Origin: Lentzea guizhouensis
Lineage (GTDB): Bacteria; Actinomycetota; Actinomycetes; Mycobacteriales; Pseudonocardiaceae
Assembly (NCBI RefSeq): GCF_001701025.1
Contig: NZ_CP016793.1
Span: 3,038,001 to 3,102,000 of the forward strand
Direction: 5' to 3'
DNA: 64,000 nucleotides
The notes under the pieces were generated by a model that searched no databases, was not told where the DNA came from, and worked only from the letters and a program-made list of their open reading frames with translations. This document shows, piece after piece, positions 14,400 through 56,222 of this stretch (positions within the stretch are counted from its first letter, which is position 1; every line of letters begins with the position of its first letter). Both the position numbers and the translations under genes were made by a program.

Positions 14400-14427
14400 T
14401 ACTCGCGAGTAAGACTACTGATGAGTA
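14400..14427. promoter_or_regulatory. Paired TetR operator, site A (TACTnnnnAGTA x2)
   Basis: TACTCGCGAGTA (14400-14411, a perfect palindrome) and TACTGATGAGTA (14416-14427) are separated by 4 bp, centre spacing 16 bp. They lie between the divergent SCP2 and TetR starts. The same arrangement occurs at 17126-17153. I infer that the TetR protein encoded at 14482 binds both and represses its own gene and the lipid genes. Confidence 0.75.
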
Positions 14428-14481
14428 GATAGAGCGGCAAGCCGATCGGATAATCTTGTGCCTTCAGAACGAGGGGTAGTG

Positions 14482-15117
14482 ATGCGCACAGAAGGTCGAG
14501 CCAAGCGCTTGCCACGCGCGGTGCGTGAGCGGCAGATCATGGACGCTGCCGTCGACGTGTTCTCGCGGCTCGGCTTCCACGCGGCGTCGATGGACGAGAT
14601 CTCCGACGTCGCGGGCATCTCCAAGCCCATGCTCTACGCCTACCTGGGGTCGAAGGAAGAGCTGTTCGCGACCTGCATCCGGCGCGAGGCCACCAGGATG
14701 ATGGAGGCCATCGCGACCGGCGTCGAGCCCGACCAGGAACCGGACGTGCAGCTGTGGAGCGGGCTGCGCGCGTTCTTCGGGTTCGTCGGGGAGAACCGGG
14801 CGAGCTGGCAGGTGCTGCACCGGCAGGCGTCCTCGCAGGGCGGGCCGTTCGCGGCCGAGCTGACGGACATGCGCGGGCGGGCCGTGTCGCTGGTCGCCGC
14901 GCTGCTCACCCAGTCGACGAAGGCGCCGGCGACCAAGCTGGAGGCGGAGTCGCTGGCCGCCGCGCTGGTCGGTGCCGGTGAGTCGCTCGCGGACTGGTGG
15001 CTCGACCACCCCGAGGAACCGGCCGGCGTGGTCGCGGCCAGGCTCATGAACCTCGTGTGGATGGGCTTCGGCGACCTCGTCGACGGCAACGTGTGGCACC
15101 CGCCGTCACGGCGTTGA
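14482..15117 (+). CDS. TetR-family regulator, candidate controller of the fatty-acid regulon
   Basis: An N-terminal TetR helix-turn-helix (RQIMDAAVDVFSRLGFHAAS, MDEISDVAGISKPMLYAYLG) and an all-helical ligand domain, 211 residues. ATG 14482 has GAGGGG at five bases; a GATAAT -10 box sits at 14449-14454, so the mRNA has a short leader. The gene is divergent from SCP2/acyl-CoA dehydrogenase and convergent with htdX, overlapping its end by 12 bp. Position next to operator pair A makes it the best candidate for the regulator of all TACTnnnnAGTA sites; the natural ligand would be a long-chain acyl-CoA by analogy with other TetR lipid regulators (inference). Confidence 0.88.
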   Translation: MRTEGRAKRLPRAVRERQIMDAAVDVFSRLGFHAASMDEISDVAGISKPMLYAYLGSKEELFATCIRREATRMMEAIATGVEPDQEPDVQLWSGLRAFFGFVGENRASWQVLHRQASSQGGPFAAELTDMRGRAVSLVAALLTQSTKAPATKLEAESLAAALVGAGESLADWWLDHPEEPAGVVAARLMNLVWMGFGDLVDGNVWHPPSRR

Positions 15118-15879
15118 GCTCCGGGCAGAGCCCACCAGGTGGGGGCCCTTGCCCCAGACGGCGAACCCCCAGCCGTTCGCGTCCTCGCGCGCCGAAAATT
15201 CGACGCGTCCCGGGATCAGCAACGGCTTCTTGAACCTCACGTCCACCGACACCGCCTCGGGCAGCCGGCCCTCCAGCGCCGCGAGGCAGCGCGCCTTGGT
15301 CCACATCCCGTGCGCGATCGCCCGCGGGAACCCGAACAGCTTGGCGCTCAACGGGTGCAGGTGGATCGGGTTGCGGTCGCCGGACACCGCGCCGTAGCGC
15401 CGGCCGATGTCCGCGGGCACCCGCCACACCGCCGACCCGGCCGGGCGCTGCAGCTCCTCGCCCGACGACGAGCCGGACCCGGTGCGCCGCAGGTAGGTCG
15501 ACACCCCTTCCCAGACCCCGGACACCGACGTCACGACGTCGACCTGGGTGCCCTGCGGGTGCGGTCGCAGGTCGCGCGCCGACACCGTGACCTCCAGCGG
15601 CTCGTCCAGCGTCAACGGCCGCGACTGCGTGATCCGGTTCGCGACGTGCACCAGGCCGGGCAGGGGGAACGGGAACCCGGCGCCGGTCATCAGCTCCATC
15701 TGCAACGGAAAGCCCAGCACGTGCGGGTAGGTCAGCGGCAACGCGTCGCGCAGCCCGAACCCGCACACCTCGTCGTACGCCGCCAGGTGCTTCAGCGAGA
15801 CGTCGTACGTGGCCGAAACCGGTTCTGCGGCAAGGGAGTCGCTGCGCCGGAACGACGTGAGCGCCGCCTTCAGCAACAT
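15106..15879 (-). CDS. htdX: MaoC-like (R)-3-hydroxyacyl dehydratase, HtdX type
   Basis: A 257-residue double hot-dog protein. The C-terminal half carries the hydratase 2 motif around YGAVSGDRNPIHLHPLSAKL with the Asp/His catalytic pair, and IAHGMWTKARCLA follows, as in MaoC proteins. Its neighbours FabG4 and FadA2 have the same order and orientation as the M. tuberculosis Rv0241c-Rv0242c-Rv0243 group, which supports the HtdX name. The ATG shares its A with the fabG4 TGA, so the two are translationally coupled. It hydrates trans-2-enoyl thioesters or the reverse; direction in vivo is not readable. Confidence 0.85.
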   Translation of the reverse strand: MLLKAALTSFRRSDSLAAEPVSATYDVSLKHLAAYDEVCGFGLRDALPLTYPHVLGFPLQMELMTGAGFPFPLPGLVHVANRITQSRPLTLDEPLEVTVSARDLRPHPQGTQVDVVTSVSGVWEGVSTYLRRTGSGSSSGEELQRPAGSAVWRVPADIGRRYGAVSGDRNPIHLHPLSAKLFGFPRAIAHGMWTKARCLAALEGRLPEAVSVDVRFKKPLLIPGRVEFSAREDANGWGFAVWGKGPHLVGSARSSTP

Positions 15880-17114
15880 CACGCCCCCAGCAGCATCTGG
15901 CCGCAGACCCGCACGACGTTCCCGTTCACGCCACCGGATCCCGGCGAGGCGAACCACGCGACGGTCTCCGCCACGTCCGCCGGCAGCCCGCCCTGCGCCA
16001 GGCTGTTCATCCGCCGCCCGGCCTCACGGGTCAGCAACGGCACGGCCGCGGTCATCTTCGTCTCGATGAAACCGGGTGCGACGGCGTTGATCGTGGCCCC
16101 GCGCCCGGCCAGCACCGGAGCCAGCGCGTTGACCATCCCGATCACGCCGGCCTTCGAGGTGGCGTAGTTGGTCTGGCCGACGTTGCCCGCGATCCCGGCG
16201 ATCGACGACACGCCGACGATCCGCCCGCCGGCGCGCAGCACGTCGCCCTCCAGCAGGGCCGCGTTGATCCGCTCCTGGCAGGCGAGGTTGACCTCCAGCA
16301 CCGCGTCCCACTTGTCCGCGTCCATGCGCGCCAGCGTCTTGTCGCGGGTGATGCCCGCGTTGTGCACGACGACGTCGACGCCGCCGTGCCGTTCCAGCAG
16401 GTACGAGGTCAGCTTCGCGGGATCGCCGGTGATGTCGAGCTGCACCGCCGACCCGCCGACCGCGTTCGCGACCTTCGACAGGTCCTCGCCGGCCGCGGGC
16501 ACGTCCAGGCACACCACGTGCGCGCCGTCGCGGGCCAGTGTCGTCGCGATCGCCTCACCGATGCCCCGCGAGGCACCCGTGACGAGCGCGACCTTGCCCT
16601 CCAGCGTGCCGGTCGACGCCGCCTCGGACACGCGGACGACCTGCCCCGACACGTACGCGGACCGTCCGGACAGCAGGAACCGCAGCGTCGACTCGACCCC
16701 GTCTTCGGCCCCGTCGGCTACATAGACCAGGTTCGCCGTGCCACCCCGTCGCAGCTCCTTGCCGACGGAACGCACGAAGCCTTCGAGAGCCCGTTGCGCC
16801 ACCGAGTCCGGCGACCGCCCGATCACGACCACCCGCCCGCACGGCCCGAGCTGCGTGATCACCGGGTGGAAGAAGTCGTGCAGCTGCCGCAGGTCGGCCA
16901 CGGTGTCGATGTCGGAGGCGTCGAACACCAGCGCGCCGTAGGGTGCGGACCCGGTTTCGAGCTGCTTGAGGAAGGGCAGCCGGGAGGCGCCACCGACCAG
17001 AACCGGCGTGGCCAGGGCGGCGTCACGGCGCAGTGGGTGCGGGTTCGGCAGGCCGAGCCTGCGCACGAGCTGGCGGCCGAGCCCCGACGAGGCGAACTTC
17101 TGGTACCTGTCCAC
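15879..17114 (-). CDS. fabG4: High-molecular-weight 3-oxoacyl-thioester reductase, FabG4 type
   Basis: Two Rossmann-like domains: a degenerate N-terminal flavodoxin-like half (about residues 1-165) and a C-terminal SDR half with cofactor motif TGASRGIGEA, NNAG-equivalent HNAG, catalytic Ser in GVSSIAGIAG and YATSK. This long form is characteristic of FabG4 (Rv0242c), which reduces long 3-oxoacyl-CoA with NADH. I start at GTG 17114 because family members begin there; TTG at 17123 is possible. It is transcribed away from fadA2, with operator pair B between, and is coupled to htdX. Confidence 0.87.
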   Translation of the reverse strand: MDRYQKFASSGLGRQLVRRLGLPNPHPLRRDAALATPVLVGGASRLPFLKQLETGSAPYGALVFDASDIDTVADLRQLHDFFHPVITQLGPCGRVVVIGRSPDSVAQRALEGFVRSVGKELRRGGTANLVYVADGAEDGVESTLRFLLSGRSAYVSGQVVRVSEAASTGTLEGKVALVTGASRGIGEAIATTLARDGAHVVCLDVPAAGEDLSKVANAVGGSAVQLDITGDPAKLTSYLLERHGGVDVVVHNAGITRDKTLARMDADKWDAVLEVNLACQERINAALLEGDVLRAGGRIVGVSSIAGIAGNVGQTNYATSKAGVIGMVNALAPVLAGRGATINAVAPGFIETKMTAAVPLLTREAGRRMNSLAQGGLPADVAETVAWFASPGSGGVNGNVVRVCGQMLLGA

Positions 17115-17125
17115 GTCACACAACC

Positions 17126-17161
17126 TACTCGCTAGTAAGTCTACCCGCTAGTAGGTAGTAT
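17126..17161. promoter_or_regulatory. Paired TetR operator, site B, with fadA2 -10 box
   Basis: TACTCGCTAGTA (17126-17137) and TACCCGCTAGTA (17142-17153) again lie 4 bp apart with 16-bp centre spacing, matching site A including the AGTC/AGAC spacer type. A TAGTAT -10 box (17156-17161) ends six bases before the fadA2 ATG, so operator occupancy would block the -35 region of fadA2 and the start of fabG4. Confidence 0.75.
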
Positions 17162-17167
17162 GACGGC

Positions 17168-18373
17168 ATGCGCGTAGCGATCATCGGCGGCAACCGCATC
17201 CCGTTCGCCCGCTCGAACGGCCCGTACGCCACCGCCTCGAACCAGGACATGCTCACCGCGGTGCTGGACGGCCTGGTCAGCCGGTTCGGCCTGCAGGGCG
17301 AACGCCTCGGCGAGGTGGTCGCGGGCGCCGTGCTCAAGCACTCGCGCGACTTCAACCTCGTGCGCGAGTCGGTGCTCGGCAGCGGGCTCAGCCCGCAGAC
17401 GCCCGCCTACGACCTCCAGCAGGCGTGCGGCACCGGTCTGCAGGCGATCGTCGCGGTGGCCAACAAGATCGCGCTCGGCCAGATCGAGGCCGGCATCGCG
17501 GGCGGCGTCGACACCACCAGCGACGCGCCGATCGGGGTGAACGAGAACTTCCGCAAGCTGCTGCTGGAGTTCAACCGCACCCGCAAGGTCAGCCTGCTCG
17601 CCAAGCTGCGCCCCAGCCACGTCGTCCCGCACCTGCCGCGCAACGGCGAACCGCGCACCGGCATGTCCATGGGCGAGCACGCCGCCGTCACCGCCGCGAA
17701 GTACGGCATCACCCGCGAGGACCAGGACGAGCTGACCGCGCGCAGCCACCGCAACCTCGCCCGCGCCTACGACGAGGGCTTCTTCGACGACCTCGTCACG
17801 CCCTACCTCGGCCTCACCCGCGACCAGAACCTCCGCCCGGACAGCAGCGTCGAGAAGCTCGCCAAGCTCAAGCCGGTCTTCGGCGACACCATGACCGCCG
17901 GCAACTCCACGCCGCTGTCGGACGGCGCCTCCGCGGTCCTGCTCGCCACCGAGGAGTGGGCCGCCGCCCGCAACCTCCCGGTGCTCGCCCACCTGACCTT
18001 CGCCGAGACCGCCGCCGTCGACTACGTGCACGGCGAGGAGGGCCTGCTCATGGCGCCCGTGCACGCCGCGCCGCGGATGCTCGAGAAGGCGGGCCTCAAG
18101 CTGCAGGAGTTCGACTTCTACGAGGTGCACGAGGCGTTCGCGTCCCAGGTCCTCGCCACGTTGAAGGCCTGGGAGACCGGCCTCGGCGAGATCGACCGCG
18201 CCAAGCTCAACGTCAACGGCTCGTCGCTCGCCGCCGGGCACCCGTTCGCGGCGACCGGTGCGCGGATCGTGGCCACGCTCGCGAAGCTGTTGCACCAGAA
18301 GGGCAGCGGACGCGGGTTCGTGTCGATCTGCGCCGCGGGCGGTCAGGGGATCACGGCGGTCCTGGAGCGATGA
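17168..18373 (+). CDS. fadA2: Acetyl-CoA C-acyltransferase (thiolase), FadA2 type
   Basis: Thiolase of 401 residues performing the last, chain-cleaving step of beta-oxidation. The acylated nucleophile Cys87 lies in QQACGTG, the second-site histidine about 358 in GHPFAATG, and the acid/base Cys about 388 in ICAAGGQG; all are intact. The lysine-rich loop and YEVHEAFASQ segment fit bacterial FadA/FadI. The ATG at 17168 immediately follows a -10 box, so translation is probably leaderless. Divergent from fabG4 through operator pair B, as in the mycobacterial fabG4-fadA2 locus. Confidence 0.92.
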   Translation: MRVAIIGGNRIPFARSNGPYATASNQDMLTAVLDGLVSRFGLQGERLGEVVAGAVLKHSRDFNLVRESVLGSGLSPQTPAYDLQQACGTGLQAIVAVANKIALGQIEAGIAGGVDTTSDAPIGVNENFRKLLLEFNRTRKVSLLAKLRPSHVVPHLPRNGEPRTGMSMGEHAAVTAAKYGITREDQDELTARSHRNLARAYDEGFFDDLVTPYLGLTRDQNLRPDSSVEKLAKLKPVFGDTMTAGNSTPLSDGASAVLLATEEWAAARNLPVLAHLTFAETAAVDYVHGEEGLLMAPVHAAPRMLEKAGLKLQEFDFYEVHEAFASQVLATLKAWETGLGEIDRAKLNVNGSSLAAGHPFAATGARIVATLAKLLHQKGSGRGFVSICAAGGQGITAVLER

Positions 18374-18422
18374 GTTCCGCGCGGTCCTGAGGTCAAAGCA
18401 TCCGAACCCGCTGAGGATGAGG

Positions 18423-19403
18423 ATGGCGACCATGACCCTGCAGGACGTGCTGGAGACCCACCGCGCGACCACCCCGAACGCCGTGGCGCTCGTCGCCCGC
18501 GGTGACGACGTCGAGTTCGCGGCGGTCGGCGGCGAGACCCGCGCTTCGGTGTTCGCGATCGCCTCGGTCACCAAGCCGATCGTCGCGTACGCCGCGCAGT
18601 CGCTGGTGCAGGACGGCGGCATCGCGCTGGACGACCCGATCGCGAAGTGGCTGCCCGAACTGGCCGAACCGAAGGTCGTCCGCACACCGCAGAGCCCGGT
18701 GGACGACGTGGTCGCGGCGACCACGCCGATCACCGTGCGGCACCTGCAGACGTCCCGGTCCGGCTGGGGCTTCGCAGCGGACTTCTCGTTGCCCGCCACC
18801 GAGAAGCTGTTCGAGAAGGCGCACCTGCACGACCGTCCCGACCTGCCGGCGCCGGACGAATGGCTGCCGCGGCTCGCTGAGGTGCCGCTGCTGCACCAGC
18901 CGGGTGAGGGCTGGCTCTACAACACCTCCTACGACGTGCTCGGCGTGCTGCTCGACCGCGTGACCGGGTCCCTGCCGGACTTCCTGGCCGAGCGCGTCTT
19001 CGCGCCGTTCGGCATGACCGCCACCAGCTTCCTCAGCCCGGTCTTCCCGTCCGGTGCCGGAGGTCTGAGCTCCACCGCGAACGACCTGCTGGCGTTCTGC
19101 CGCGGTCTGCTCGCGAGCGATCTGCTGCCGGTGCTGGCGAACGACACGATGACGGCGGACGAGCGCGAGACCGCGGAGATCTTCCTGGAGGGACAGGGCT
19201 GGGGCCACGGCGGCAGCGTCGACGTCGTGGACCGCGACCCGTGGAACGTCCCCGGCCGCTACGGCTGGGTCGGCGGGGCCGGTACGGCGGCGCACGTCGT
19301 TGCGTCGCAGGGGAAAGCGACCGTGCTGCTCACCCGGACGGCCATGACGAGCCCCGCGTCGCCGCCGGTGATGCGCGACTTCTGGGAACTCGCTGCCGGA
19401 TAG
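18423..19403 (+). CDS. Serine hydrolase of the beta-lactamase / family VIII esterase class
   Basis: A 326-residue cytoplasmic protein with the class C beta-lactamase fold. The nucleophile motif S-x-x-K is seen in ASVTKP (about residue 44), the second motif is YNTSYD in place of YxN, and HGG stands at the KTG-box position. There is no signal peptide, so an intracellular esterase or peptidase is more likely than a drug-inactivating enzyme. Three in-frame ATGs (18417, 18423, 18432) compete; 18423 has GAGGA at five bases. It trails fadA2 by 49 bp and may be co-transcribed. Confidence 0.8.
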   Translation: MATMTLQDVLETHRATTPNAVALVARGDDVEFAAVGGETRASVFAIASVTKPIVAYAAQSLVQDGGIALDDPIAKWLPELAEPKVVRTPQSPVDDVVAATTPITVRHLQTSRSGWGFAADFSLPATEKLFEKAHLHDRPDLPAPDEWLPRLAEVPLLHQPGEGWLYNTSYDVLGVLLDRVTGSLPDFLAERVFAPFGMTATSFLSPVFPSGAGGLSSTANDLLAFCRGLLASDLLPVLANDTMTADERETAEIFLEGQGWGHGGSVDVVDRDPWNVPGRYGWVGGAGTAAHVVASQGKATVLLTRTAMTSPASPPVMRDFWELAAG

Positions 19404-20921: not shown

Positions 20922-20930
20922 GAGAACGCA

Positions 20931-32215: not shown

Positions 32216-32227
32216 TACTGGTGAGTA
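32216..32227. promoter_or_regulatory. TACTnnnnAGTA site E
   Basis: TACTGGTGAGTA, inside a wider GCTACT...AGTAGC dyad (32209-32228), 46 bp before the DUF6801 ATG. It matches the operator dodecamer of the fatty-acid sites but stands alone, so membership in that regulon is tentative. Confidence 0.45.
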
Positions 32228-32272
32228 GCTCCATTCCCTGCAGTTCGATGCCGCACTCAGGAGAACCCTGCC

Positions 32273-32866
32273 ATGAAACTCGGAATCATCGCACGTGCCG
32301 CCGCGGTCGTTTTGTTCGCCGGAACCATGAGCATTGCGGCAGCGGGCACCAGCCAGGCCGCCGACGTGACCCTGGACATCACGTACTCCTGCACGTTCAC
32401 CCTGATCGGCGCCCAGGACCAGCCGTCCACGGTCACCGCCACGAACATGCCGGACTCCGCCACCGCCGGCGTGCCCACCGCGGAAGGCCAGACCCAGGTC
32501 GTCTCGACCGTGTCCGAATCGGCCACGAGCGTGCTGAACTGGCTCGGCGCCGCGACCGTCGAAGGCACCCTGAGCACCACGAACACCATCAACAACGCCG
32601 GCACCGTCTCCTCGGCCACGGCGACGCTGACCATCCCCAAGACCAACGTCGCCCCGTCCGGCACGTTCAACGTGACCGGCACCGGCGTCTTCCCGTCGTT
32701 GACGCTGGCCAACCCCGGCACCACGACGATCAACCTCGGCAACGCCTCGCTCACCCTGACCCCGCGCCACGCCGACGGCTCCACGACGTTCCTCGGCACG
32801 TTCACCTCGCCCTGCACCGTGAAGGCGGGCCAGAACACCAAGCTGCACGAGTTCCAGGTGGCGTAA
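32273..32866 (+). CDS. Secreted DUF6801-type protein
   Basis: 197 residues with a signal peptide (RAAAVVLFAGTMSIAAAGTS, cleavage after TSQA). The mature part is Thr/Ser/Val-rich beta structure with two cysteines, one in ITYSCTFTL and one in FTSPCTVKAGQN, positioned to form a disulfide; this pattern is that of DUF6801. Such proteins occur in multiple copies in actinomycete secretomes with no known role. AGGAG stands ahead of ATG 32273. Confidence 0.8.
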   Translation: MKLGIIARAAAVVLFAGTMSIAAAGTSQAADVTLDITYSCTFTLIGAQDQPSTVTATNMPDSATAGVPTAEGQTQVVSTVSESATSVLNWLGAATVEGTLSTTNTINNAGTVSSATATLTIPKTNVAPSGTFNVTGTGVFPSLTLANPGTTTINLGNASLTLTPRHADGSTTFLGTFTSPCTVKAGQNTKLHEFQVA

Positions 32867-41115: not shown

Positions 41116-42951
41116 CTAGAAGACGTTCTCGTCGATGTCCATCAGCGAGTTGTCGGTCTGCTCGGTGATCTTGCGGCGCGCGGTCAGCTCCGGCAGCACG
41201 TTCTTCGCGAAGAACGACGCCACCGCGACCTTGCCCTCGTAGAAGGCCTTGTCCTTGGCCGACGGGGTGCCGCCGAGCTTCTCCAGCGCGACCTCGGCCT
41301 GGCGCAGCAGCAGCCAGCCGACGAGCACGTCACCCGCGGTCATCAGCAGGCGCACGGAGTTCTGGCCGACCTTGTAGAGGTTGCGCACGTCCTCCTGCGA
41401 CGAGGTCAGGAAGCCGACCAGGGCGCCGAGCATGCCCTGCAGGTCTTCCAGACCCTGCTTGAGGAGAGCGCGCTCCTCCTTCAGGCGACCGTTGCCGCCC
41501 TCGTTGTCGAGGAAGGACTGGATCTCACCGTTGATGAACGCGAGCGCCTGGCCCTTGTCGCGGATGATCTTCCGGAAGAAGAAGTCCAGCGACTGGATGG
41601 CCGTGGTGCCCTCGTACAGCGAGTCGATCTTCGAGTCCCGGATGTACTGCTCGATCGGGTACTCCTGCAGGAAGCCGGAGCCGCCCAGGGTCTGCAGCGA
41701 CTGCGCGAGCTGCTCGTAGGCGCGCTCGGAGCCGACACCCTTGACGATCGGCAGCAGCAGGTCGTTGACCTTGACGGCCAGCTCCGCGTCCTCGCCGCCG
41801 AGCATCACCTTGTCCTGGAACGTCGCGGTGTACAGGTACACCGCGCGCAGGCCCTCGGCGTAGGCCTTCTGCAGCATCAGGCTGCGGCGCACGTCCGGGT
41901 GGTTGGTGATGGTGACGCGCGGGGCGGTCTTGTCCGTCATCCGCGTGAGGTCGGCGGACTGGACGCGCTCCTTGGCGTAGGACAACGCGTTCAGGTAGCC
42001 GGTCGACAGCGTCGCGATGGCCTTGGTGCCGACCATCATGCGGGCGTACTCGATGACGTCGAACATCTGCGCGATGCCGTCGTGCACCTCGCCGAGCAGC
42101 CAGCCCTTGGCCGGGACGCCGTGCTGGCCGAACGTCAGCTCGCACGTGGTGGACGCCTTGATGCCCATCTTGTGCTCGACGTTGGTCACGAAGGCGCCGT
42201 TGCGCTCGCCCAGCTCACCGGACTCCGGGTCGAAGTGGAACTTCGGCACCAGGAACAGCGACAGGCCCTTGGTGCCGGGCTTCGCCTCGATGCCCTCACC
42301 CTCGGGGCGCGCGAGCACCATGTGCATGATGTTCTCGGTCAGGTCCTGGTCGGCCGACGTGATGAACCGCTTCACGCCCTCGATGTGCCAGGAGCCGTCC
42401 TCCTGCTTGATCGCCTTGGTGCGGCCGGCACCGACGTCGGAACCGGCGTCCGGCTCGGTCAGCACCATCGTGGCGCCCCAGCCGCGGTCGATCATCAGCT
42501 GCGCCCAGTGCTGGTCGCGCTCGGTGCCGTTGTTGTAGACGACCGTCGCGAAGCTCGGGCCCGCGAGGTACATGTAGATCGGCGGGTTGGCGCCCAGGAT
42601 CAGCTCGGACGCGGCCCACGCGACGGAAGGCGGGGTGCCGAAGCCGCCCAGCGCCTCCGGCAGGAACATGCGGTACCACTCGCCGTCCCAAATCGCCTTG
42701 TACGACTTCTTCAACGACTCCGGCAGGGTCGCCGAGAACGTCGCCGGGTCGTACTTCGGCGGGTTGCGGTCGGCGTCGGCGAACGAGTCCGCGAGGGGCC
42801 CCTCCGCCAGCGTCTTCATCTCGGCCAGAACGCCGCGCGCGGTGTCCTCGTCGGACTGCTCGAACGGCCCCTTGCCGAGGTGGTCCTGCACGTTGAAGAC
42901 CTCGAACAGGTTGAATTCGAGATCCCGGACGTTGCTCTTGTAGTGGCCCAT
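41116..42951 (-). CDS. fadE5: Long-chain acyl-CoA dehydrogenase, FadE5 type
   Basis: 611 residues, the same length as M. tuberculosis FadE5 (Rv0244c), with the same opening [19 protein letters not shown]. Acyl-CoA dehydrogenase core motifs are present ([59 protein letters not shown] with [11 protein letters not shown]), followed by the C-terminal extension domain special to this class. FadE5 oxidises a broad range of acyl-CoAs in mycobacteria. There fadE5 adjoins fabG4-fadA2; here it is 24 kb away but keeps the same type of operator upstream. It is transcribed alone. Confidence 0.93.
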
Positions 42952-42989: not shown

Positions 42990-43025
42990 TACTGACCGGT
43001 AACAACAGAGTATTACTCGACAGTA
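42990..43025. promoter_or_regulatory. TACTnnnnAGTA site C before fadE5
   Basis: TACTGACCGGTA (42990-43001) and TACTCGACAGTA (43014-43025, within TTACTCGACAGTAA) lie 24 bp apart centre to centre, 39-74 bp ahead of the fadE5 start. The second copy keeps both half-sites; the first has GGTA in place of AGTA. Confidence 0.65.
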
Positions 43026-46206: not shown

Positions 46207-46377
46207 CCGGCACGGATTCCTAACCGGGCACACGTAGTCGCAAAATGGTCGAATTCGGCGTGTCGAAAATTATCAGGCATGTGGAATTCTCTTCCGTGTT
46301 GTTGTAGTGCGGCAGTACCCTGCGGTGACGGACTGCCTGGCAGAAAACTGAATCTGCATCAGATGTGGAGGCTGCAC

Positions 46378-48861
46378 GTGGGAGATGGCACGCGCAACAA
46401 CTTCCGTGGTGATGCAAAGATCGTGGTCCAAGCTGAGGCAATTTACAGTGGGGCAATTTTAGATCTACCGCGCAGCAATCCGTCGGCTGTTCTGTCGCTG
46501 CCGCGAGCGACGGCTGCGTTCACGGGGCGAAGTGAAGAGCTTGCCGTTCTGCTGGCAACAGCAGGCGAGCTTTACGAAAGATGCGTCGTTGCTGTTCACG
46601 CCATCGACGGCATGGCCGGAATCGGAAAGACTGCCTTCGCCATTCATGCGGCTCATCGGCTTGCAGATCAGTTTCCGGATGCGCAGCTGTTTCTCAGGTT
46701 GCACGCGCACACCCCAGGTCGTCGCGCTGTTGAGCCGGTGGACGCACTCGGCTCATTGCTCACCGCGATCGGAGTTGCTGCGCAGAACGTGCCCGCAGGT
46801 GTGGACGCGCGGGCTGCGATGTGGCGCAGTCAAATGGCGGGTAAGCGAGCATTGATCGTGCTGGACGACGCAAGTGGACATCAGCAGGTCGAGCCACTGC
46901 TGCCATCGACCTCGGGCTGTCTGGTGCTTGTCACCAGCAGACGTCGTCTAGCCGCCTTGGAAACGTCGCTGTCAATGGCACTGGACACACTTCCTGTCGA
47001 TGAGGCGACCCGTCTCTTTTTTCGTCTTTCGGGTTGTGCTGTTGATGATGTGAGTGTTGAGGCTGTCGCTCGTATCGTCGGGATGTGCGGGTATCTGCCA
47101 CTCGCCATCGCACTTCTGGCGGGGAGGCTCCGTCATCGTCCGTCGTGGAGCGTTGGGGACCTTGCGGACAGTCTGAGCGCCACCCGAAATCGGCTGAGTG
47201 AGCTCCGGGCTGAAGACCTTGCTGTGGCATCTGCGTTCGAACTGTCCTACCGGGACTTGAGTCCGGCGCGCCAGAGGTTCTTCATCTCGCTTGGTCTGCA
47301 TCCTGGATCGGAGATGGATGCGTGGACTGCGGCAGCCCTTGCAGGCATCTCTGCCGTCGACGCCCGCGAACACCTCGAAGGGCTCTACGACGACCATCTC
47401 CTCGATGAGCCGTCACGCGGCCGGTATCGAATGCACGACCTGGTGCGGGAGTACTCGAGAAGCCTGGAGGAGTCGGACGGCTCGGTCGATCGCGATGCTG
47501 CTCTGGGACGACTTGTCGATTACTACGACGTGGCCGCTGCGAAAGCGGACGGTTTCATCACCGCAGAAATAACCAGGGAGGCGCCGAAGGCGGCAGCGGA
47601 TGCGCTTGACCCCCAAGTGGAGTTCGCCCACCTGACCACCCGGGTTGAGGCTTGGGACTGGATGCGGAACGAGTACGCCAACATCCTGGCGTGCGTCGAA
47701 CGGATCGCGGTCAGTCCATCGTCAGAGCTCGGTGTCGTGATGAGGTTGGCAGCCAGCCTGGCGACGTTCTTCGTTGCTGTCGGCCCTTGGGATCGGGCGA
47801 TCGAGCTCCACGAATCCGCCGCTCTTGTTGCTGAGAAGTGTGGAGATCGTCTTGCTGTTGCCCAAGCGCTGCACCGCATCGGGCGGCTGCAATGGCTCAC
47901 CGGTCACTATCCGGAATCCATAAGCAACCTGAAGACGGCTGCTGCGATCTACGGCGAGCTTCATCACCGGCTGGGGCAGGTACGGGCCCTCGTTCAGCTT
48001 GGTGGCGCGTTGCGGCAGGCCGATGAGTACGCCAAAGCGGCGAACTCCTATCTTGATGCCTTGAAGATTTGTCGGTCTGCAGGAAACAGACTGGATGAAG
48101 CTGCGGCGTTGAACGGGCTCGGTATCATCAGGTTCGTTCAAGGTCGCCTCGTCCTGGCCGTCGAGTCACATCAACAAGCGCTGGAGATATTCCGCTCACT
48201 CGGCGATCGCCTTGGTCAGGCCGACGCGCGCAACGAGCTCGGTGTGGTGAAACGCGTGATGGGTGAGAATGTCGAATCCATTGAGCATCACGAGATGGCG
48301 CTGGCGGTATATCGAGACCTGAATGACGGGTATCACGACGCTTTCACTCTGAACAATCTCGGAACGGCTTGGCGCATGGCCGGGCTCTATGAGAAATCAA
48401 TGAGACTGCACAACGAGGCCATTGGAGTATCCCGACGTCTGGGTGATCGGGTGGGTCTTGCGGTTGGCTTCGGAGAGCTGGCCGCATCTCTTCGGATGAC
48501 CGGTCATCTTGAGACAGCTGTCGACATGAACGCGCGGGCGCTCGAACTCTTCCGTTCGATCGGTCACAGGCTCGGGGTTGCCCAAACTTTGAACGAGAAG
48601 GGATCGATTCTGCTTGCCCTGGACCAGGCTGGTGAAGCCGTCCAGCTGCATGAGCAGGCGCTGGAAATCTCACGAACAGTGGGAGCGCCGCTCGAAGAGG
48701 CGCGTGCCCTGGAAGGAGCAGGTCGTTGCGCCGCCAGTCTTGGACAGGTTGATCTTGCCTCTGTGCAGCTCCGGCGCGCTATGGACCTCTACGAGCGGAT
48801 CGGAGCCGCTGAAACCGCGACTCTCGCGTACGAGAGCCTCGGACCTGGAGATCTTGCATGA
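46378..48861 (+). CDS. NLR-like STAND ATPase (NB-ARC plus TPR) with amyloid-motif-like N-terminus
   Basis: 827 residues. GTG 46378 is six bases behind GGAGG and places a short motif at the extreme N-terminus, NNFRGDAKIVVQAEAIYSG, like the VVQAG-type segments seen before NB-ARC domains in actinobacterial NLRs. The NB-ARC is complete: P-loop GMAGIGKT (78-85), Walker B ALIVLDD, sensor LVTSRRR, GxP-type GYLPLAIALL and MHD in YRMHDLVREYS. At least eight TPRs (each about 40 residues) follow as the ligand-sensing arm. No DNA-binding or enzymatic effector is attached. Base composition and codons are clearly less GC-rich than all neighbours, a sign of transfer. Role in defence or regulated cell death is inference. 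Confidence 0.85.
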   Translation: MGDGTRNNFRGDAKIVVQAEAIYSGAILDLPRSNPSAVLSLPRATAAFTGRSEELAVLLATAGELYERCVVAVHAIDGMAGIGKTAFAIHAAHRLADQFPDAQLFLRLHAHTPGRRAVEPVDALGSLLTAIGVAAQNVPAGVDARAAMWRSQMAGKRALIVLDDASGHQQVEPLLPSTSGCLVLVTSRRRLAALETSLSMALDTLPVDEATRLFFRLSGCAVDDVSVEAVARIVGMCGYLPLAIALLAGRLRHRPSWSVGDLADSLSATRNRLSELRAEDLAVASAFELSYRDLSPARQRFFISLGLHPGSEMDAWTAAALAGISAVDAREHLEGLYDDHLLDEPSRGRYRMHDLVREYSRSLEESDGSVDRDAALGRLVDYYDVAAAKADGFITAEITREAPKAAADALDPQVEFAHLTTRVEAWDWMRNEYANILACVERIAVSPSSELGVVMRLAASLATFFVAVGPWDRAIELHESAALVAEKCGDRLAVAQALHRIGRLQWLTGHYPESISNLKTAAAIYGELHHRLGQVRALVQLGGALRQADEYAKAANSYLDALKICRSAGNRLDEAAALNGLGIIRFVQGRLVLAVESHQQALEIFRSLGDRLGQADARNELGVVKRVMGENVESIEHHEMALAVYRDLNDGYHDAFTLNNLGTAWRMAGLYEKSMRLHNEAIGVSRRLGDRVGLAVGFGELAASLRMTGHLETAVDMNARALELFRSIGHRLGVAQTLNEKGSILLALDQAGEAVQLHEQALEISRTVGAPLEEARALEGAGRCAASLGQVDLASVQLRRAMDLYERIGAAETATLAYESLGPGDLA

Positions 48862-50870: not shown

Positions 50871-51959
50871 ATGAGGTTGCAGTACCGGGCGGTGGCCGTT
50901 GCCGTCGCATTGCCGCTCATGTTCACGACGGGCACCGCGCTCGCCCAAGCCGGGGGAACCGTCGGCGGTGTCGTCTTCAAGGACCTCAACGGTGACGGCG
51001 TCCAGCAGGACGCCGAGCCGGGCATCGGCGGTGTGCACGTCGTCGTCCGAACCGCGGACGGCACGCCCTCAGCGCACCCGACCGACGCCGCCGGCAAGTG
51101 GAGCGCGAGGCTCCCGCTGGGGACGTACGCCGCCGGCTACGTCGACCCGAAGCTCGGCAACACCACGCACTCCAACGTCGAGTTCACCCTCGGCGACACC
51201 GCCAAGGTCGACTTCGGCCTGCGCGGCGGCCAGATCTGCGGCCTCGCGTGGCACGACCGGGACGAGGACGGCCGCAACAACGGCGAGGCCGGGCTGGCCG
51301 GTCGGATCATCGCGCTCAACGGGACCCCCGAGCACGCCGTGACCGGTGCGGACGGCGGCTACTGCCTCGAGGACCTGCCCGCGGGGGTCCACCAGCTCAA
51401 GTTCAGCCGGAAGTCCGACGACCCGTTCGTGCCCACCAAGCCGGGCGGCGACTCGAAGTTCCACTGGCTCACCTCGGCCACGGGAGCGATCCACCTCGCC
51501 AAGGGCCAGGTCGTGAAGAACGTCGACCTGGGGCTGATGGCGCAGCGGACCGACCTCAGGGCCACCGGCCTGACCTTCGACCGCGATCCCGCGAACGCGT
51601 GGCGGGTCGGCGACACCCTCACCGTCTACGGCGGGGTCATGGCCGGCGGCAACGCGCCGCAGACCCTCGGCGGCACGCTGACCCTGCCGGAGGGACTGCG
51701 CATCACGGGCACGGCCGGCGGCCTCGGCGACGTCGCGCTCGTGCAGGGGCAGCAGGTGGTCGTGCCGTTCGGGCCGCTGCGGGAGCCGGGCGTCAACGAG
51801 GCGCTCGGTGTTCGGGTCGTGGTGGAGAAGCCGTTCACCGCGGCCGAGGTGCGGTGGGAGGCCGGGAGCAGCACGCGCGACACGGACCTGACCGACAACG
51901 TGCTCACGCAGGCGGTCAGCGCCACGTCCGCCGAGCTGATCGTTAGTGCATTCGAGTGA
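50871..51959 (+). CDS. Secreted SdrD B-like domain protein
   Basis: 362 residues with a signal peptide (AVAVAVALPLMFTTGTALAQA). Two SdrD B/Cna B-like beta-sandwich domains each open with a calcium-loop type segment: VVFKDLNGDGVQQDAEPG and LAWHDRDEDGRNNGEAGLAG. The remainder is a CARDB-like beta domain ending DNVLTQAVSA. There is no LPXTG or membrane anchor, so it is released or loosely surface-bound. GGGGG precedes ATG 50871. A terminator lies at 52052. Confidence 0.8.
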   Translation: MRLQYRAVAVAVALPLMFTTGTALAQAGGTVGGVVFKDLNGDGVQQDAEPGIGGVHVVVRTADGTPSAHPTDAAGKWSARLPLGTYAAGYVDPKLGNTTHSNVEFTLGDTAKVDFGLRGGQICGLAWHDRDEDGRNNGEAGLAGRIIALNGTPEHAVTGADGGYCLEDLPAGVHQLKFSRKSDDPFVPTKPGGDSKFHWLTSATGAIHLAKGQVVKNVDLGLMAQRTDLRATGLTFDRDPANAWRVGDTLTVYGGVMAGGNAPQTLGGTLTLPEGLRITGTAGGLGDVALVQGQQVVVPFGPLREPGVNEALGVRVVVEKPFTAAEVRWEAGSSTRDTDLTDNVLTQAVSATSAELIVSAFE

Positions 51960-52051
51960 CATTTCGGGAACCGGGCAACATCCGTGGGGTCCGTGGGGTC
52001 TTACGGTCGGGATCTGCTCCGGGGGGACGCTGATCACCAGGGGGTAAGTCG

Positions 52052-52086
52052 AACCGCCCGCGTCCAGCGAGAGGACGCGGGCGGTT
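52052..52086 (+). terminator. Terminator after SdrD-like gene
   Basis: Perfect 14-bp arms AACCGCCCGCGTCC and GGACGCGGGCGGTT with loop AGCGAGA, followed by CTGTTT. The 90 bases before it hold only a double CCGTGGGGT repeat (51981-51998). Confidence 0.88.
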
Positions 52087-52115
52087 CTGTTTCGCGGCGC
52101 AACTACCATCGTGGG

Positions 52116-52667
52116 ATGGGCGAGCGTGGTGCGGACGACACCGACACCGAGGTCGAGTCGTGGAGGGCCGTGGTTCCGGCGATCGATCCGGTGGTCGAGG
52201 GAGTCGTCGACCGGGTGCACCAGATCAGCAAGTACCTCGACTTCCTCGCGACCGAGATCGCCGCGCCGCACGGGTTGAACCGCGCCGACTACGAGATCCT
52301 GGCCCGCTTGTTCTGGATCGGGCCACCGCACCGGCTCACGCCCAAGCAGCTCGCGAACGGCACGCTCAGCCCCGCCACCACGATCACCAGCCGCCTCGAC
52401 CGCCTGGAGAAGGCCGGTCTGGTCAGCCGTGAGCTCGACCCGAGCGACCGCCGCTCGTTGCCCGCCACGCTGACCGACGCGGGCCGCGAGATCTTCCTGC
52501 AGATCGTCGCCGGACAGGCCGCACGCGAGCGGGAGCTCTTCACCGCGTTGCCCAGCGCCGACCTGGAACACCTGCGCGAGCTGTTGAAGCAGGTCATGGA
52601 GGTCTTCGCGGGTGAGCTCGGGCCCGCCCGCCGGCGCACCACGCTGGCGCTCGACGGCAAGCAATGA
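52116..52667 (+). CDS. MarR-family transcriptional regulator
   Basis: 183 residues with a MarR winged helix: helical entry ILARLFWIGPPHRLTPKQLA, recognition helix LSPATTITSRLDRLEKAG, wing ELDPSDRRSLPATLTDAG. ATG 52116 lies shortly after a TACCAT element, so a leaderless message is possible. Phenolic or drug-like ligands are usual for the family. The dyad TACGA-GT-TCGTA just behind the gene may be its operator. Confidence 0.85.
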   Translation: MGERGADDTDTEVESWRAVVPAIDPVVEGVVDRVHQISKYLDFLATEIAAPHGLNRADYEILARLFWIGPPHRLTPKQLANGTLSPATTITSRLDRLEKAGLVSRELDPSDRRSLPATLTDAGREIFLQIVAGQAARERELFTALPSADLEHLRELLKQVMEVFAGELGPARRRTTLALDGKQ

Positions 52668-52672
52668 TTGCT

Positions 52673-52700
52673 ACGAGTTCGTACTATCCGATATCGTACT
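52673..52700. promoter_or_regulatory. Palindromic block downstream of marR gene
   Basis: TACGAGTTCGTA is followed at once by an AT-rich segment with GATATCGTAC; repeated CGTAC elements suggest a regulator site. Behind it, GAGGGAGGGG precedes an 8-codon ORF (52729-52755) with no conserved continuation. I see no gene in 52668-52830. Confidence 0.35.
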
Positions 52701-52830
52701 GATGCAGTGCGAGAGGGAGGGGTGCGACATGGGTGGATATCCGCTGTCCGAGTGACCGGCACGGGTGCGTTCCTCGTGGCGCGCCGCCGTCGTTCGTGAC
52801 CACTTAGGACCGCCACGGCTAGTGTGCGGC

Positions 52831-53211
52831 ATGGGCATCTTGGTGCATGTGCTGCTGACCGCCGTGGCGGTCTGGGTCTCGACGGCCCTCCCCGGCATCG
52901 ATCTGGGCGAAGGCAGCACCGGATCGCGAATCCTCACGCTGCTCGGCGTCGCGGTGATCTTCGGCCTGGTGAACGCGGTCGTGAAGCCGCTCGTGAAGTT
53001 CTTCGGCTGCCTGTTCTACCTGCTGACGCTCGGCCTGATCGGGCTGGTGGTGAACGCGCTGCTGTTCATGCTCACCGGCTGGCTGGCCGAACAGCTCGAC
53101 CTGCCGTTCCGCGTGGACGGGTTCTGGCCGGCGTTCTGGGGCGCGATCATCGTCGCGCTGGCCGGGTGGCTGCTGAACGTCGTCTACGACAAGGTCACCG
53201 ACAAGGACTGA
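52831..53211 (+). CDS. Four-helix membrane protein of the phage_holin_4_2 (DUF360) family
   Basis: 126 residues, four hydrophobic helices, with the family's STALPGIDLGEG loop and NAVVKPLVKFFGCLFYLLTL segment. Despite the name these proteins are ordinary bacterial membrane proteins. TAGTGT (52820-52825) ends five bases before ATG 52831, so translation is probably leaderless. A bidirectional terminator follows. Confidence 0.87.
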   Translation: MGILVHVLLTAVAVWVSTALPGIDLGEGSTGSRILTLLGVAVIFGLVNAVVKPLVKFFGCLFYLLTLGLIGLVVNALLFMLTGWLAEQLDLPFRVDGFWPAFWGAIIVALAGWLLNVVYDKVTDKD

Positions 53212-53225
53212 ACCACAGCAACGGA

Positions 53226-53260
53226 AAAGGCCCTCGGTCCACATCGGACAGAGGGCCTTT
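53226..53260. terminator. Bidirectional terminator
   Basis: AAAGGCCCTC-g-GTCC / GGAC-a-GAGGGCCTTT between the convergent holin-like and Uma2 genes, with A-run and T-run on either side so it can act both ways. Confidence 0.85.
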
Positions 53261-53262
53261 GA

Positions 53263-53867
53263 CTACGCGTACCAGGATTCGAGTAGCTGAGCCGGATCGA
53301 AGTTCATCGGGAACGGTACGTCGGTCTTGAACGTTTGCCCGGAGAGTGCGGTCGCAAGCGGCTTGTACGTCTCGCCGTCGAGCTCAAGAAGTTCGACCTT
53401 CACTGCGTGTGGCTTCGCGAACTCCACTCGCATGAAGTACGGGATCCCGGCTTGAGCACATTCGGCCGGCTTGTTGATGCGATCGCGCCGACGGCTGGAT
53501 GCCGATACGAACTCGACCGGCATCAGCACGAGGTCTGCGGGATCCAGGTCAGGTCCTCGATCGGCTGTTGCAACACGGTCAGGTCGGGCTGAATCCAACG
53601 CTGAGGACTGAACTCGACGTTGACTGTCGGGTAGACCCGCCTGCCGGCCTTCATCGCTTGGTCGTCGATGAGCATCGCCAGTCGAAGCATGCCGAAGCCG
53701 TTGGGGCTCCCCTCGTACGGGCTCTTTACCAGGTAACCGTCCAAGCATTCGTACTTCACCCGTGGGGCGCCCGGGATGGGGAGGTAGAGCTCGGCCAACT
53801 CTGTCGTCCAGATGCCGTGCAGGTCGACCAAAGGGTCGAACGGCAACGGCATTGCCTCTGCGCTCAT
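53263..53867 (-). CDS. Uma2-family (DUF820) nuclease-fold protein, one frameshift
   Basis: Restriction-endonuclease-like fold. The first half reads through VNVEFSPQRWIQPDLTVLQQ to DLTWIP, then stops; the second half in another frame continues DLVLMPVEFVSASSRRRDRI and KPAECAQAGIPYFMRVEF, with the PD...ExK-like acidic residues. One added base at CCC-GCA near 53538 joins them into about 201 residues, the usual size. Substrate and role are unknown; these genes are often mobile. ATG 53867 follows GGAGGTGGAG. I consider the gene intact and the base missing from the sequence. Confidence 0.75.
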
Positions 53868-53925
53868 CTGCTCCACCTCCACATCCAGGAGGGTACCGGC
53901 TACCAGGTCTGACGGTCGTTTGGGA

Positions 53926-56187
53926 TCAGACCTTCGACTTGTCCTCGTCCGGCAGCGGCGTGCCCGTCGGCACCTCGTCCGTCGGCGTGTCGGCCTTCTC
54001 CGTGCCCCGCCGCACCGACTCCAGCAGCATCTGTGCCACGTCCACGACCTCGACGTGCGCGCCCGCCTGGCCGTCGGACTGCCGCGCGGTCACGCCGTCG
54101 GTCAGCATCACGCGGCAGAACGGGCAGCCGGTCGCGATCTTCGACGGCGCGGTGCCCAGGGCCTCGTCGACGCGGTCGAGGTTGATGCGCTTGCCGATGC
54201 GCTCTTCCATCCACATGCGCGCGCCGCCGGCGCCGCAGCACATCGAGCGCTCTTCGTGGCGCGGCATCTCGCGCAGCTTCGCGCCGGATGCGCCGATGAG
54301 CTCGCGCGGGGCCTCGTAGACCTTGTTGTGGCGGCCCAGGTAGCACGGGTCGTGGTAGGTCACGTCCTCGGTGACCGGTGCGACCGGGACCAGGCGGCGT
54401 TCGCGGACCAGCTTGTTCAGCAGCTGCGTGTGGTGCACGACCTCGTAGGTGCCACCGACCTGCGGGTACTCGTTCGCGAGCGTGTTGAAGCAGTGCGCGC
54501 ACGTCACGACGATCTTGCGCTGGCCGGCCGGGCGGTCTTCGAAGACCGCGTTCAGGACCTCGACGTTCTGCTGCGCGAGCATCTGGAAGAGGAACTCGTT
54601 GCCGGCGCGGCGGGCCGGGTCGCCGGTGCAGGTCTCCTCCGGGCCGAGGACCGTGTACTTGACGCCCGCGGTGTGCAGCAGCTCGGCCACGGCGCGGGTG
54701 GTCTTCTTCGCGCGGTCCTCGAACGCGCCGGCGCAGCCGACCCAGAACAGGTACTCGGCGTCGCCGAGCTCGCCCTCGAAGACCGGCACCTCGAAGTCCA
54801 GGCCCTCGGTCCACGCGAGGCGGTCCTTGGCGTTCTGGCCCCAGGGGTTGCCCTTGTTCTCCAGGTTCTTGAACATGCCGCCGAGCTCGGTCGGGAAGTT
54901 CGACTCGATCAGCACCTGGTAGCGGCGCATGTCGACGATGTGGTCGACGTGCTCGATGTCGACCGGGCACTGCTCGACGCAGGCACCGCAGGTCGTGCAG
55001 GACCACAGCACCTCGGGGTCGATGACACCCAGCTCGTCGGGGCCGCCGACCAGCGGGCGCTCGGACTCGGCCATCGCCAGCACGTCGATCGACTCGAGGC
55101 GCTTCTTGTAGTCCTCGTACTTGTCCTCGGTCAGGCCGACCTCGTCGCCTGCCATGTCACGCGAGCCGCCGGCCAGCAGGTACGGGGCCTTGGCGAACGC
55201 GTGGTCGCGCAGCTGCGTGATGACCATCTTGGGGGACAACGGCTTGCCGGTGTTCCAGGCCGGGCACTGCGACTGGCAGCGGCCGCACTCGGTGCAGGTG
55301 GAGAAGTCGAGCCAGCCCTTCCAGCTGAAGTCCTCGACCTTGCCGACGCCGAACACGTCCTTGTCGGGATCGGCCTCCTCCAGGTCGAGCACCTTGCCGC
55401 CGGACATCATCGGCTTCAGGGCGCCCAGGGCGACGCCGCCGTCGTCCTCGCGCTTGAAGTAGATGTTGAAGAACGCAGAGAACCGGTGCCAGGCGATGCC
55501 CATGGTCAGGTTCCGGCCGACCACGACCAGCCAGATCATGCCGCTCAGCAGCTTGACCAGCGCCATGACCGACACCCAGATCGGTGCGGCCGGCAGCAGG
55601 GAAGCGAGCGGCTGGGTCACGAACGACGTCCACAGCGGCGCGGACTCGAGGCCGCTCGACTGCTTGAACGCCTTCACGAGCAGGATGCCGAGGCCTTCGA
55701 TGATGACGACGGCCTCGACGAAGTACGCCGACCTGAAGCTGGAACCGGCGAAGCGCGAGACGCGGTCGGCGCGGCGCGGGTGGTTGCGCTGGCGGATGAC
55801 GGCGAGGGCCACACCACCGACGACGGTGCCCAGGCCCAGCAGTTCGACGAGCAGCAGCCACAGCGACCACGTGCCGATGACCGGCCAGTGGAAGCGCGGG
55901 TCGAACACCTCGCCGTAGGCCTCGAACAGCACCGCGGAGCCGATGAGGAAGCCCCACATCACCATCCAGTGCCACGGGGCGACCGAGCGGAACTTGGCCA
56001 TCCTGGTGTGCGCGACGAACTCGACGACCAACGTCTTGAGCCGCGGCCAGAACGGGCCCGTGCGCGTCCCGTCCGGCTGGCCGAGCCGGATGATCTTGAT
56101 CATCTTCCAGACGCCGGCGACGAACACGCCCCAGGCGACGACGCTCACCACTACGGCGACGAGTCCGAGAACCAGCTGGAGGGTCAT
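53926..56187 (-). CDS. Membrane Fe-S oxidoreductase, EtfD/HdrD-like (ETF:menaquinone oxidoreductase candidate)
   Basis: 753 residues. The N-terminal 250 hold several transmembrane helices (VLGLVAVVVSVVAWGVFVAG onward). Two 4Fe-4S motifs follow, CTECGRCQSQCPAWNTGK and CTTCGACVEQCPVDIEH, then two CCG-type domains (CAHCFNTLANEYP; CCGAGGARMW), the heterodisulfide-reductase subunit D pattern. Mycobacterial EtfD (Rv0338c) has this design and passes electrons from acyl-CoA dehydrogenases through ETF to menaquinone. A perfect TACTnnnnAGTA operator stands 20 bp upstream, linking it to the fatty-acid genes. The acidic tail is of no known function. Confidence 0.88.
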   Translation of the reverse strand: MTLQLVLGLVAVVVSVVAWGVFVAGVWKMIKIIRLGQPDGTRTGPFWPRLKTLVVEFVAHTRMAKFRSVAPWHWMVMWGFLIGSAVLFEAYGEVFDPRFHWPVIGTWSLWLLLVELLGLGTVVGGVALAVIRQRNHPRRADRVSRFAGSSFRSAYFVEAVVIIEGLGILLVKAFKQSSGLESAPLWTSFVTQPLASLLPAAPIWVSVMALVKLLSGMIWLVVVGRNLTMGIAWHRFSAFFNIYFKREDDGGVALGALKPMMSGGKVLDLEEADPDKDVFGVGKVEDFSWKGWLDFSTCTECGRCQSQCPAWNTGKPLSPKMVITQLRDHAFAKAPYLLAGGSRDMAGDEVGLTEDKYEDYKKRLESIDVLAMAESERPLVGGPDELGVIDPEVLWSCTTCGACVEQCPVDIEHVDHIVDMRRYQVLIESNFPTELGGMFKNLENKGNPWGQNAKDRLAWTEGLDFEVPVFEGELGDAEYLFWVGCAGAFEDRAKKTTRAVAELLHTAGVKYTVLGPEETCTGDPARRAGNEFLFQMLAQQNVEVLNAVFEDRPAGQRKIVVTCAHCFNTLANEYPQVGGTYEVVHHTQLLNKLVRERRLVPVAPVTEDVTYHDPCYLGRHNKVYEAPRELIGASGAKLREMPRHEERSMCCGAGGARMWMEERIGKRINLDRVDEALGTAPSKIATGCPFCRVMLTDGVTARQSDGQAGAHVEVVDVAQMLLESVRRGTEKADTPTDEVPTGTPLPDEDKSKV

Positions 56188-56204
56188 GGCGGGAGTCTAG
56201 GCCA

Positions 56205-56222
56205 GGTTACTGCTGAGTAACC
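56205..56222. promoter_or_regulatory. TACTnnnnAGTA site D before the EtfD-like gene
   Basis: GGTTACTGCTGAGTAACC: perfect 7-bp arms about a 4-base centre, containing the dodecamer TACTGCTGAGTA (56208-56219), 20 bp before the start. The most symmetrical of the five operator candidates. Confidence 0.75.

What the first reader, a model, noticed from the sequence alone, without database searches (positions are those of the whole stretch)
14400..56222. One 12-bp operator, TACTnnnnAGTA, marks scattered fatty-acid genes
Paired sites with identical 16-bp spacing lie in the SCP2/TetR (14400-14427) and fabG4/fadA2 (17126-17153) gaps; two copies precede fadE5 (42990-43025); one perfect dyad precedes the EtfD-like gene (56205-56222) and one the DUF6801 gene (32216-32227). 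All but the last control beta-oxidation or its electron exit. The TetR gene beside site A is the likely regulator, which would make an acyl-CoA-responsive regulon spanning this window.
Basis: partly seen in the sequence, partly recalled or inferred. Interest (0 to 1): 0.75.

Follow-up and report, generated by a model that had tools for sequence, protein, structure and literature searches.

The report
Two sister fatty-acid operators, not one
Short DNA switches beside fat-burning genes in a soil actinobacterium are real and conserved in many relatives, but they come in two kinds that are probably read by two different fat-sensing regulators rather than by one.

Summary
The sites are real: 6 exact TACTnnnnAGTA in the window (0.04 expected) and 25 in the 10-Mb Lentzea-like genome against 6 for the reversed control; 24 of 25 lie outside called genes.

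Sites in the TetR/SCP2 and fabG4/fadA2 gaps (class A, YYTACTnnnnAGTARR) are conserved across Pseudonocardiaceae; the fabG4/fadA2 one also in Micromonosporaceae and Mycobacterium-like genomes. Doubled copies are exactly 16 bp apart in 48 of 49 cases. The TetR is the syntenic counterpart of FdmR (Rv0238), a known long-chain acyl-CoA-responsive repressor.

The fadE5 and etfD sites differ (class B, RTTACYnnnnRGTAAY): other flanks, pairs 22-27 bp apart, and present at fadE5 in 18 of 18 examined genomes without a close match to this TetR. Class B also marks ETF, thiolase and acyl-CoA dehydrogenase genes elsewhere. I think another TetR paralogue reads class B; FasR is the best candidate, unproven. 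Against this, one paper calls FdmR a key regulator of fadE5. The DUF6801 site is conserved in 23 of 23 same-genus loci but fits neither class.

The parts
13751..14380 (-). SCP2-domain gene, divergent from tetR; its start lies 20 bp from the class A pair
   Evidence: Pfam SCP2 3.5e-12
14400..14411 (.). class A operator copy 1 (TACTCGCGAGTA)
   Evidence: exact match; class score +6.9 bits
14416..14427 (.). class A operator copy 2 (TACTGATGAGTA), 16 bp from copy 1
   Evidence: exact match; class score +5.1 bits
14482..15117 (+). TetR-family regulator, FdmR-type (an upstream GTG at 14458 is possible)
   Evidence: TetR_N and TetR_C_46; synteny; fold match 3f1b and FasR
15879..17123 (-). FabG4-like 3-oxoacyl reductase (start may be 17114)
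   Evidence: NCBIfam PRK08261 599.6 bits, cut-off 410
17126..17137 (.). class A operator copy 1 in the fabG4/fadA2 gap
   Evidence: exact match; +6.9 bits
17142..17153 (.). class A operator copy 2, one mismatch, 16 bp from copy 1
   Evidence: +7.2 bits
17168..18373 (+). FadA2-like thiolase
   Evidence: Pfam Thiolase_N/C; NCBIfam PRK09268 709 bits, cut-off 539
32216..32227 (.). unclassified copy upstream of the DUF6801 gene
   Evidence: exact match; class score -0.4 bits; exact in 23 of 23 same-genus loci
32273..32866 (+). DUF6801 gene, function unknown
   Evidence: Pfam DUF6801 1.5e-24
41116..42951 (-). FadE5-like acyl-CoA dehydrogenase
   Evidence: Pfam acyl-CoA dehydrogenase domains; 68-69% identical to the gene beside fadA2 in Mycobacterium-like genomes
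42990..43001 (.). class B operator, weaker copy
   Evidence: one mismatch; -1.6 bits
43014..43025 (.). class B operator, main copy (ATTACTCGACAGTAAC with flanks), 24 bp from the weaker copy
   Evidence: exact match; -7.1 bits
53926..56187 (-). EtfD-like iron-sulfur oxidoreductase
   Evidence: Pfam CCG and Fer4 domains; relatives in 60 of 61 genomes of the order
56206..56221 (.). class B operator (GTTACTGCTGAGTAAC)
   Evidence: exact core at 56208; -9.2 bits

Best explanation
The window holds operators of two related acyl-CoA-sensing TetR regulators. Class A ([C/T][C/T]TACTnnnnAGTA[A/G][A/G], single or doubled at exactly 16 bp) is the operator of the TetR encoded at 14482-15117, an FdmR-type regulator: a dimer covers each dodecamer, two dimers 16 bp (about 1.5 turns) apart would sit on opposite faces of the helix, and together they block the divergent SCP2/tetR and fabG4/fadA2 promoters until long-chain acyl-CoA releases them. 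Class B (RTTACYnnnnRGTAAY, single or doubled at 22-27 bp) upstream of fadE5 and etfD belongs to a wider beta-oxidation and electron-transfer regulon read by a different TetR paralogue, FasR being the best candidate. In this genome the two look alike because its class B sites mostly carry T where class B allows C or T. Shown: the sites, their conservation, the class difference, class B without this TetR. Inferred: binding, acyl-CoA release, repression, opposite-face geometry, and who reads class B.
For: Class A: 114 exact sites in 56,240 bp of TetR and FadA2 upstream windows against 7 in 1,546,302 bp elsewhere in the same 80 loci; 16-bp spacing in 48 of 49 adjacent pairs; same site in the fabG4/fadA2 gap of 4 of 4 Mycobacterium-like loci. 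Class difference: pyrimidine at -2 in 319 of 356 half-sites at TetR/fadA2 against 23 of 146 at fadE5/etfD; sixth base T in 295 of 356 against 74 of 146; fadE5 pairs 22-27 bp apart in 23 of 23. Independence: class B at fadE5 in 12 of 12 loci with and 18 of 18 without a close TetR, at etfD in 10 of 14 and 10 of 16; Markov shuffles 0 of 1500 and 1 of 1500; 3 further TetR-less genomes show it. FasR: FasR-like proteins (246-292 bits) exist in TetR-less genomes; 5 of 24 such genes have a core site in their own promoter, and all 6 core sites in 543 kb around 47 TetR loci lie in TetR promoters; the oligonucleotide crystallised with FasR holds TACTnnnnAGTT and TACnnnnnGGTA (PMC7382501, passage).
Against: PMC9262360 (passages) calls FdmR a key regulator of fadE5; if direct, FdmR reads a class B site. 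Related genomes are not independent, so the P values overstate. etfD lacks class B in 10 of 30 loci, and two families without it there still have a FasR-like gene or TetR. FasR-like proteins score below the NCBIfam cut-off of 330, and 19 of 24 show no core site in their promoter. The copies in the FasR oligonucleotide are imperfect and 13 bp apart. The weaker fadE5 copy (42990) scores only -1.6 bits, and 7 of the 25 genomic sites are undecided.
Confidence: 0.6

Rival explanations
1. One reading: one TetR (FdmR-type) binds all the sites; flank and spacing differences are tolerated or shaped by overlapping promoter elements, and in genomes without it a paralogue reads the fadE5 and etfD sites.
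For: The core TACYnnnnRGTA is shared; [quoted passage not shown] in the window all sites match one dodecamer.
Against: Base -2 odds ratio 46 between promoters, 16-bp against 22-27-bp pairs; class B at fadE5 in 18 of 18 genomes without a close TetR.
Confidence: 0.3
2. Chance palindromes, or hairpins in RNA.
For: Some genomic copies do look unrelated, for example L055 between convergent genes inside a longer inverted repeat, and copies beside a sigma factor, a LuxR regulator and a peptidase gene.
Against: 6 against 0.04 expected; 25 against 6; a core site in 76 of 80 named loci placed at the same two gaps.
Confidence: 0.01
3. Class B is read by a regulator outside this TetR subfamily, not by FasR.
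For: Class B is absent at etfD in loci of two genomes that have a FasR-like gene (G133 and G154); no binding data link FasR to these genes in the 12 listed papers.
Against: Same core as the FasR oligonucleotide and as core sites in TetR-paralogue promoters.
Confidence: 0.3

Closest known systems
FdmR (Rv0238) regulon of mycobacteria
   Same: TetR gene syntenic with htdX-, fabG4-, fadA2- and fadE5-like genes; class A site in the fabG4/fadA2 gap of 4 of 4 Mycobacterium-like loci; fatty-acid degradation targets; acyl-CoA response is published for FdmR
   Different: 41-44% protein identity; own-gap sites doubled at 16 bp here, while the four Mycobacterium-like loci show no site beside tetR; the fadE5 site there is class B; the published FdmR operator could not be compared
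FasR (Rv3208), acyl-CoA-released activator of fas-acpS
   Same: Closest named fold after 3f1b; its crystallised DNA holds the same core words
   Different: The window's TetR scores 94.8 bits against a cut-off of 330 with the FasR model, so it is not FasR; FasR is known as an activator of synthesis
TetR-type FadR of Bacillus
   Same: Predicted fold matches, acyl-CoA-binding fatty-acid regulators
   Different: 14-18% identity in the structural match

Membership tests
FdmR orthologue (window TetR) | Gene order with htdX-, fabG4-, fadA2- and fadE5-like genes | tested here: met
   4 of 4 Mycobacterium-like loci; that the window order equals Rv0238-Rv0244c is recalled
FdmR orthologue (window TetR) | Best match in Mycobacterium-like genomes is the syntenic gene | tested here: met
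   E 1e-40 to 1e-45 in four genomes, next listed matches about 1e-21 to 1e-23; the reverse search was not run
FdmR orthologue (window TetR) | Same operator as published for FdmR | not testable with these tools
   Dong 2021 is not held
FdmR orthologue (window TetR) | Released from DNA by long-chain acyl-CoA; represses fatty-acid degradation genes | not testable with these tools
   needs binding and expression assays
Single-TetR regulon over all window sites | All sites share one consensus and architecture | tested here: not met
   flank and spacing classes
Single-TetR regulon over all window sites | fadE5 site found only with the TetR | tested here: not met
   18 of 18 examined TetR-less genomes have it
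FasR as reader of class B | FasR-like gene in genomes with class B but no close TetR | tested here: inconclusive
   present in the TetR-less genomes where I fetched it, 246-292 bits for the six scored, below the cut-off of 330
FasR as reader of class B | Operator of FasR equals class B | tested here: inconclusive
   core words shared, spacing and exactness differ

The most novel reading that the evidence does not exclude
FasR, known as the long-acyl-CoA-released activator of fatty-acid synthase, also represses a beta-oxidation and electron-transfer regulon (fadE5, etfD, ETF, thiolase, isocitrate lyase) through class B operators across the order. It would then be the actinobacterial counterpart of E. 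coli FadR (recalled): one sensor that turns synthesis off and oxidation on, with FdmR a second layer using its own class A operators spaced 16 bp.
Probability: 0.2. Interest if true: 0.8.

Novelty: new variant of a known kind. Interest (0 to 1): 0.55.

Why it matters
Beta-oxidation in actinobacteria supplies precursors for natural products and, in mycobacteria, supports growth on lipids. The split gives a sharp, cheap test: probes that differ only in flank and spacing should separate two regulators. It also warns that the shared core TACYnnnnRGTA cannot be given to one TetR by motif search alone.

Tried and rejected
A single matrix made from class A sites was tried first; it scored many fadE5 and etfD promoters poorly although near-perfect palindromes stood there, which revealed class B.

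A truncated scan was suspected because all 25 sites fall before 4.32 Mb; rejected, since the control pattern hits 7.27 and 7.88 Mb and 16 sampled stretches beyond 4.32 Mb hold real sequence without N.

Rv0158 as reader of class B: its published motif is unrelated (PMC10501769, passages). GlnR was considered from memory (GTTAC-n6-GTAAC) and set aside because none of the neighbours scanned (40 proteins, not all neighbours) is an ammonium or glutamine gene. Paralogue group U1 as reader: 0 of 17 loci have a core site, which lowers but does not exclude it.

Searches for the operator letters in papers: none held TACTCGCGAGTA; 15 of 87 listed for GTTACC plus GGTAAC plus mycobacter, none recognisable from the listing as an operator paper.

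Full report
Observation. Six exact TACTnnnnAGTA stand in the window where 0.04 are expected, with one-mismatch partners at 17142 and 42990. The window is 3,038,001-3,102,000 of a one-contig genome of 9,997,872 bp. The nearest named relatives of its TetR are Lentzea (93-98% identity in five loci). The genome has 25 exact sites against 6 for the reversed control. 24 of 25 lie outside called ORFs. Neighbours scanned include AMP-binding genes at three sites, methylmalonyl-CoA mutase, aldehyde dehydrogenase, a GDSL lipase, an alpha/beta hydrolase and a TetR paralogue divergent from a flavin monooxygenase. Others have no evident lipid role (sigma factor, LuxR regulator, DivIVA, S49 peptidase, HAD hydrolase). 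A thiolase and a second GDSL lipase stand beside near-matches only (L056, L059).

The TetR. It has TetR_N and TetR_C_46. Its AlphaFold2 model (mean pLDDT 83.5) matches 3f1b (49% identity), then the FasR chains 6o6n, 6o6o and 6o6p. In four Mycobacterium-like genomes the best match is 41-44% identical and lies with htdX-, fabG4-, fadA2- and fadE5-like genes. That these are Mycobacterium is inferred; one carries a PE-family protein. The names are from recall, except that FdmR = Rv0238 and its acyl-CoA response come from passages of PMC12403877, and that Rv0238 is conserved in all mycobacteria analysed comes from a passage of PMC4482099.

Class A. In 80 named loci (21 genus labels, one an unnamed MAG) the exact dodecamer occurs 114 times in 56,240 bp of TetR and FadA2 upstream windows and 7 times in the other 1,546,302 bp; it is upstream of TetR in 37 of 80 and of FadA2 in 54 of 68. 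76 of 80 loci, 19 of 21 labels, have at least one core site anywhere in the locus; the labels without are Verrucosispora and Dactylosporangium, one locus each. Neighbouring copies are 16 bp apart in 48 of 49 cases (29 of 29 at TetR in 115 loci, 19 of 20 at FadA2 in 79 loci); 12 labels show such a pair. In the Micromonosporaceae loci the exact sites found are at the fabG4/fadA2 gap only. The four Mycobacterium-like loci have CTTACTnnnnAGTAAG in the fabG4/fadA2 gap and none beside tetR. Among the more distant TetR relatives, loci L171-L175 show no site.

Class B. For fadE5 and for etfD the tool handed over DNA for 30 loci each, out of 61 genomes searched. RTTACYnnnnRGTAAY-type palindromes stand upstream of fadE5 in 30 of 30 and of etfD in 20 of 30 (which also accepted one relaxed half). 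Base -2 is a pyrimidine in 319 of 356 half-sites at TetR/fadA2 and 23 of 146 at fadE5/etfD; the sixth base is T in 295 of 356 and 74 of 146; pairs at fadE5 lie 22-27 bp apart in 23 of 23. 23 of 61 genomes have a close TetR (E 6.4e-40 or better) and 38 have none better than 5e-28. Class B at fadE5: 12 of 12 with, 18 of 18 without (17 of these 18 genomes are listed as 93% complete or more); at etfD: 10 of 14 with, 10 of 16 without. In 20 stretches of 20 kb around fadE5, 18 from TetR-less genomes, every stretch has a core site at fadE5 and 19 of 20 have none elsewhere. GTTACYNNNNRGTAAY in 18 whole genomes gives 1 to 16 matches each (both strands counted) and control matches in 2 of 18. Of 40 neighbour proteins scanned many are lipid genes (ETF, acyl-CoA dehydrogenase, thiolase, enoyl-CoA hydratase, isocitrate lyase, AMP-binding, desaturase, lipase) and many are not (PE protein, SHMT, AIR carboxylase, PucR-type and LuxR-type regulators and others). 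In the window the sites at 14400, 14416, 17126 and 17142 score +5.1 to +7.2 bits towards class A; 42990, 43014 and 56208 score -1.6, -7.1 and -9.2; 32216 scores -0.4. The scores were trained on homologous promoters, for class B including this genome's own, so they describe and do not test. Of the 25 genomic sites 10 fall to A, 8 to B and 7 are undecided (threshold 1 bit).

Who reads class B. Two TetR groups recur across the order. U2 scores 246-292 bits with the NCBIfam FasR model (six proteins, cut-off 330) and U1 107-113 (two proteins). In 543 kb around 47 TetR loci there are 6 core sites, all 6 within promoter windows of the TetR-type gene: 5 of 24 U2, 0 of 17 U1, 1 of 4 of a third group, 0 of 2 others. 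The oligonucleotide crystallised with FasR reads TACTnnnnAGTT then TACnnnnnGGTA (PMC7382501, passage), and neighbouring dimers share that DNA (its section 10). FasR is therefore the best candidate, no more.

Against this reading. PMC9262360 (passages) calls FdmR a key regulator of fadE5. FasR paper PMC7652896, searched by term, has nothing on oxidation or fadE. Of 175 papers I saw the 12 listed; none pairs FasR or Rv3208 with fadE5 or etfD.

Function. EtfD couples beta-oxidation to respiration in mycobacteria (PMC8593149, abstract and passages; PMC13083937, passages, with FadE5 and ETF in the assay), which fits joint control of fadE5, ETF and etfD.

Noticed in passing
whole-genome coordinates G000:C1 247882-4313521: All 25 exact sites lie in the first 43% of the chromosome, although the control pattern is found in both parts. 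Not explained.
   Followed up: partly
32216-32866: The site before the DUF6801 gene is exact in 23 of 23 same-genus loci, 57-65 bp before the start, mostly as TTTACTnnnnAGTAAA; its flank fits neither class.
   Followed up: partly
L005:851-1512: A second TetR with TetR_C_46, 34% identical to the window's, stands divergent from a flavin monooxygenase with a class A-like site between; possible cross-talk.
   Followed up: partly
L346, L372, L390, L403, L405: FasR-like genes with a core operator in their own promoter, suggesting self-control in some taxa.
   Followed up: partly
46279-48861: Large gene scoring with the HaaT and AfsR models, below their cut-offs.
   Followed up: no
56307-56654: Small multidrug resistance (SMR) family gene divergent from etfD; it could share the etfD site.
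   Followed up: no
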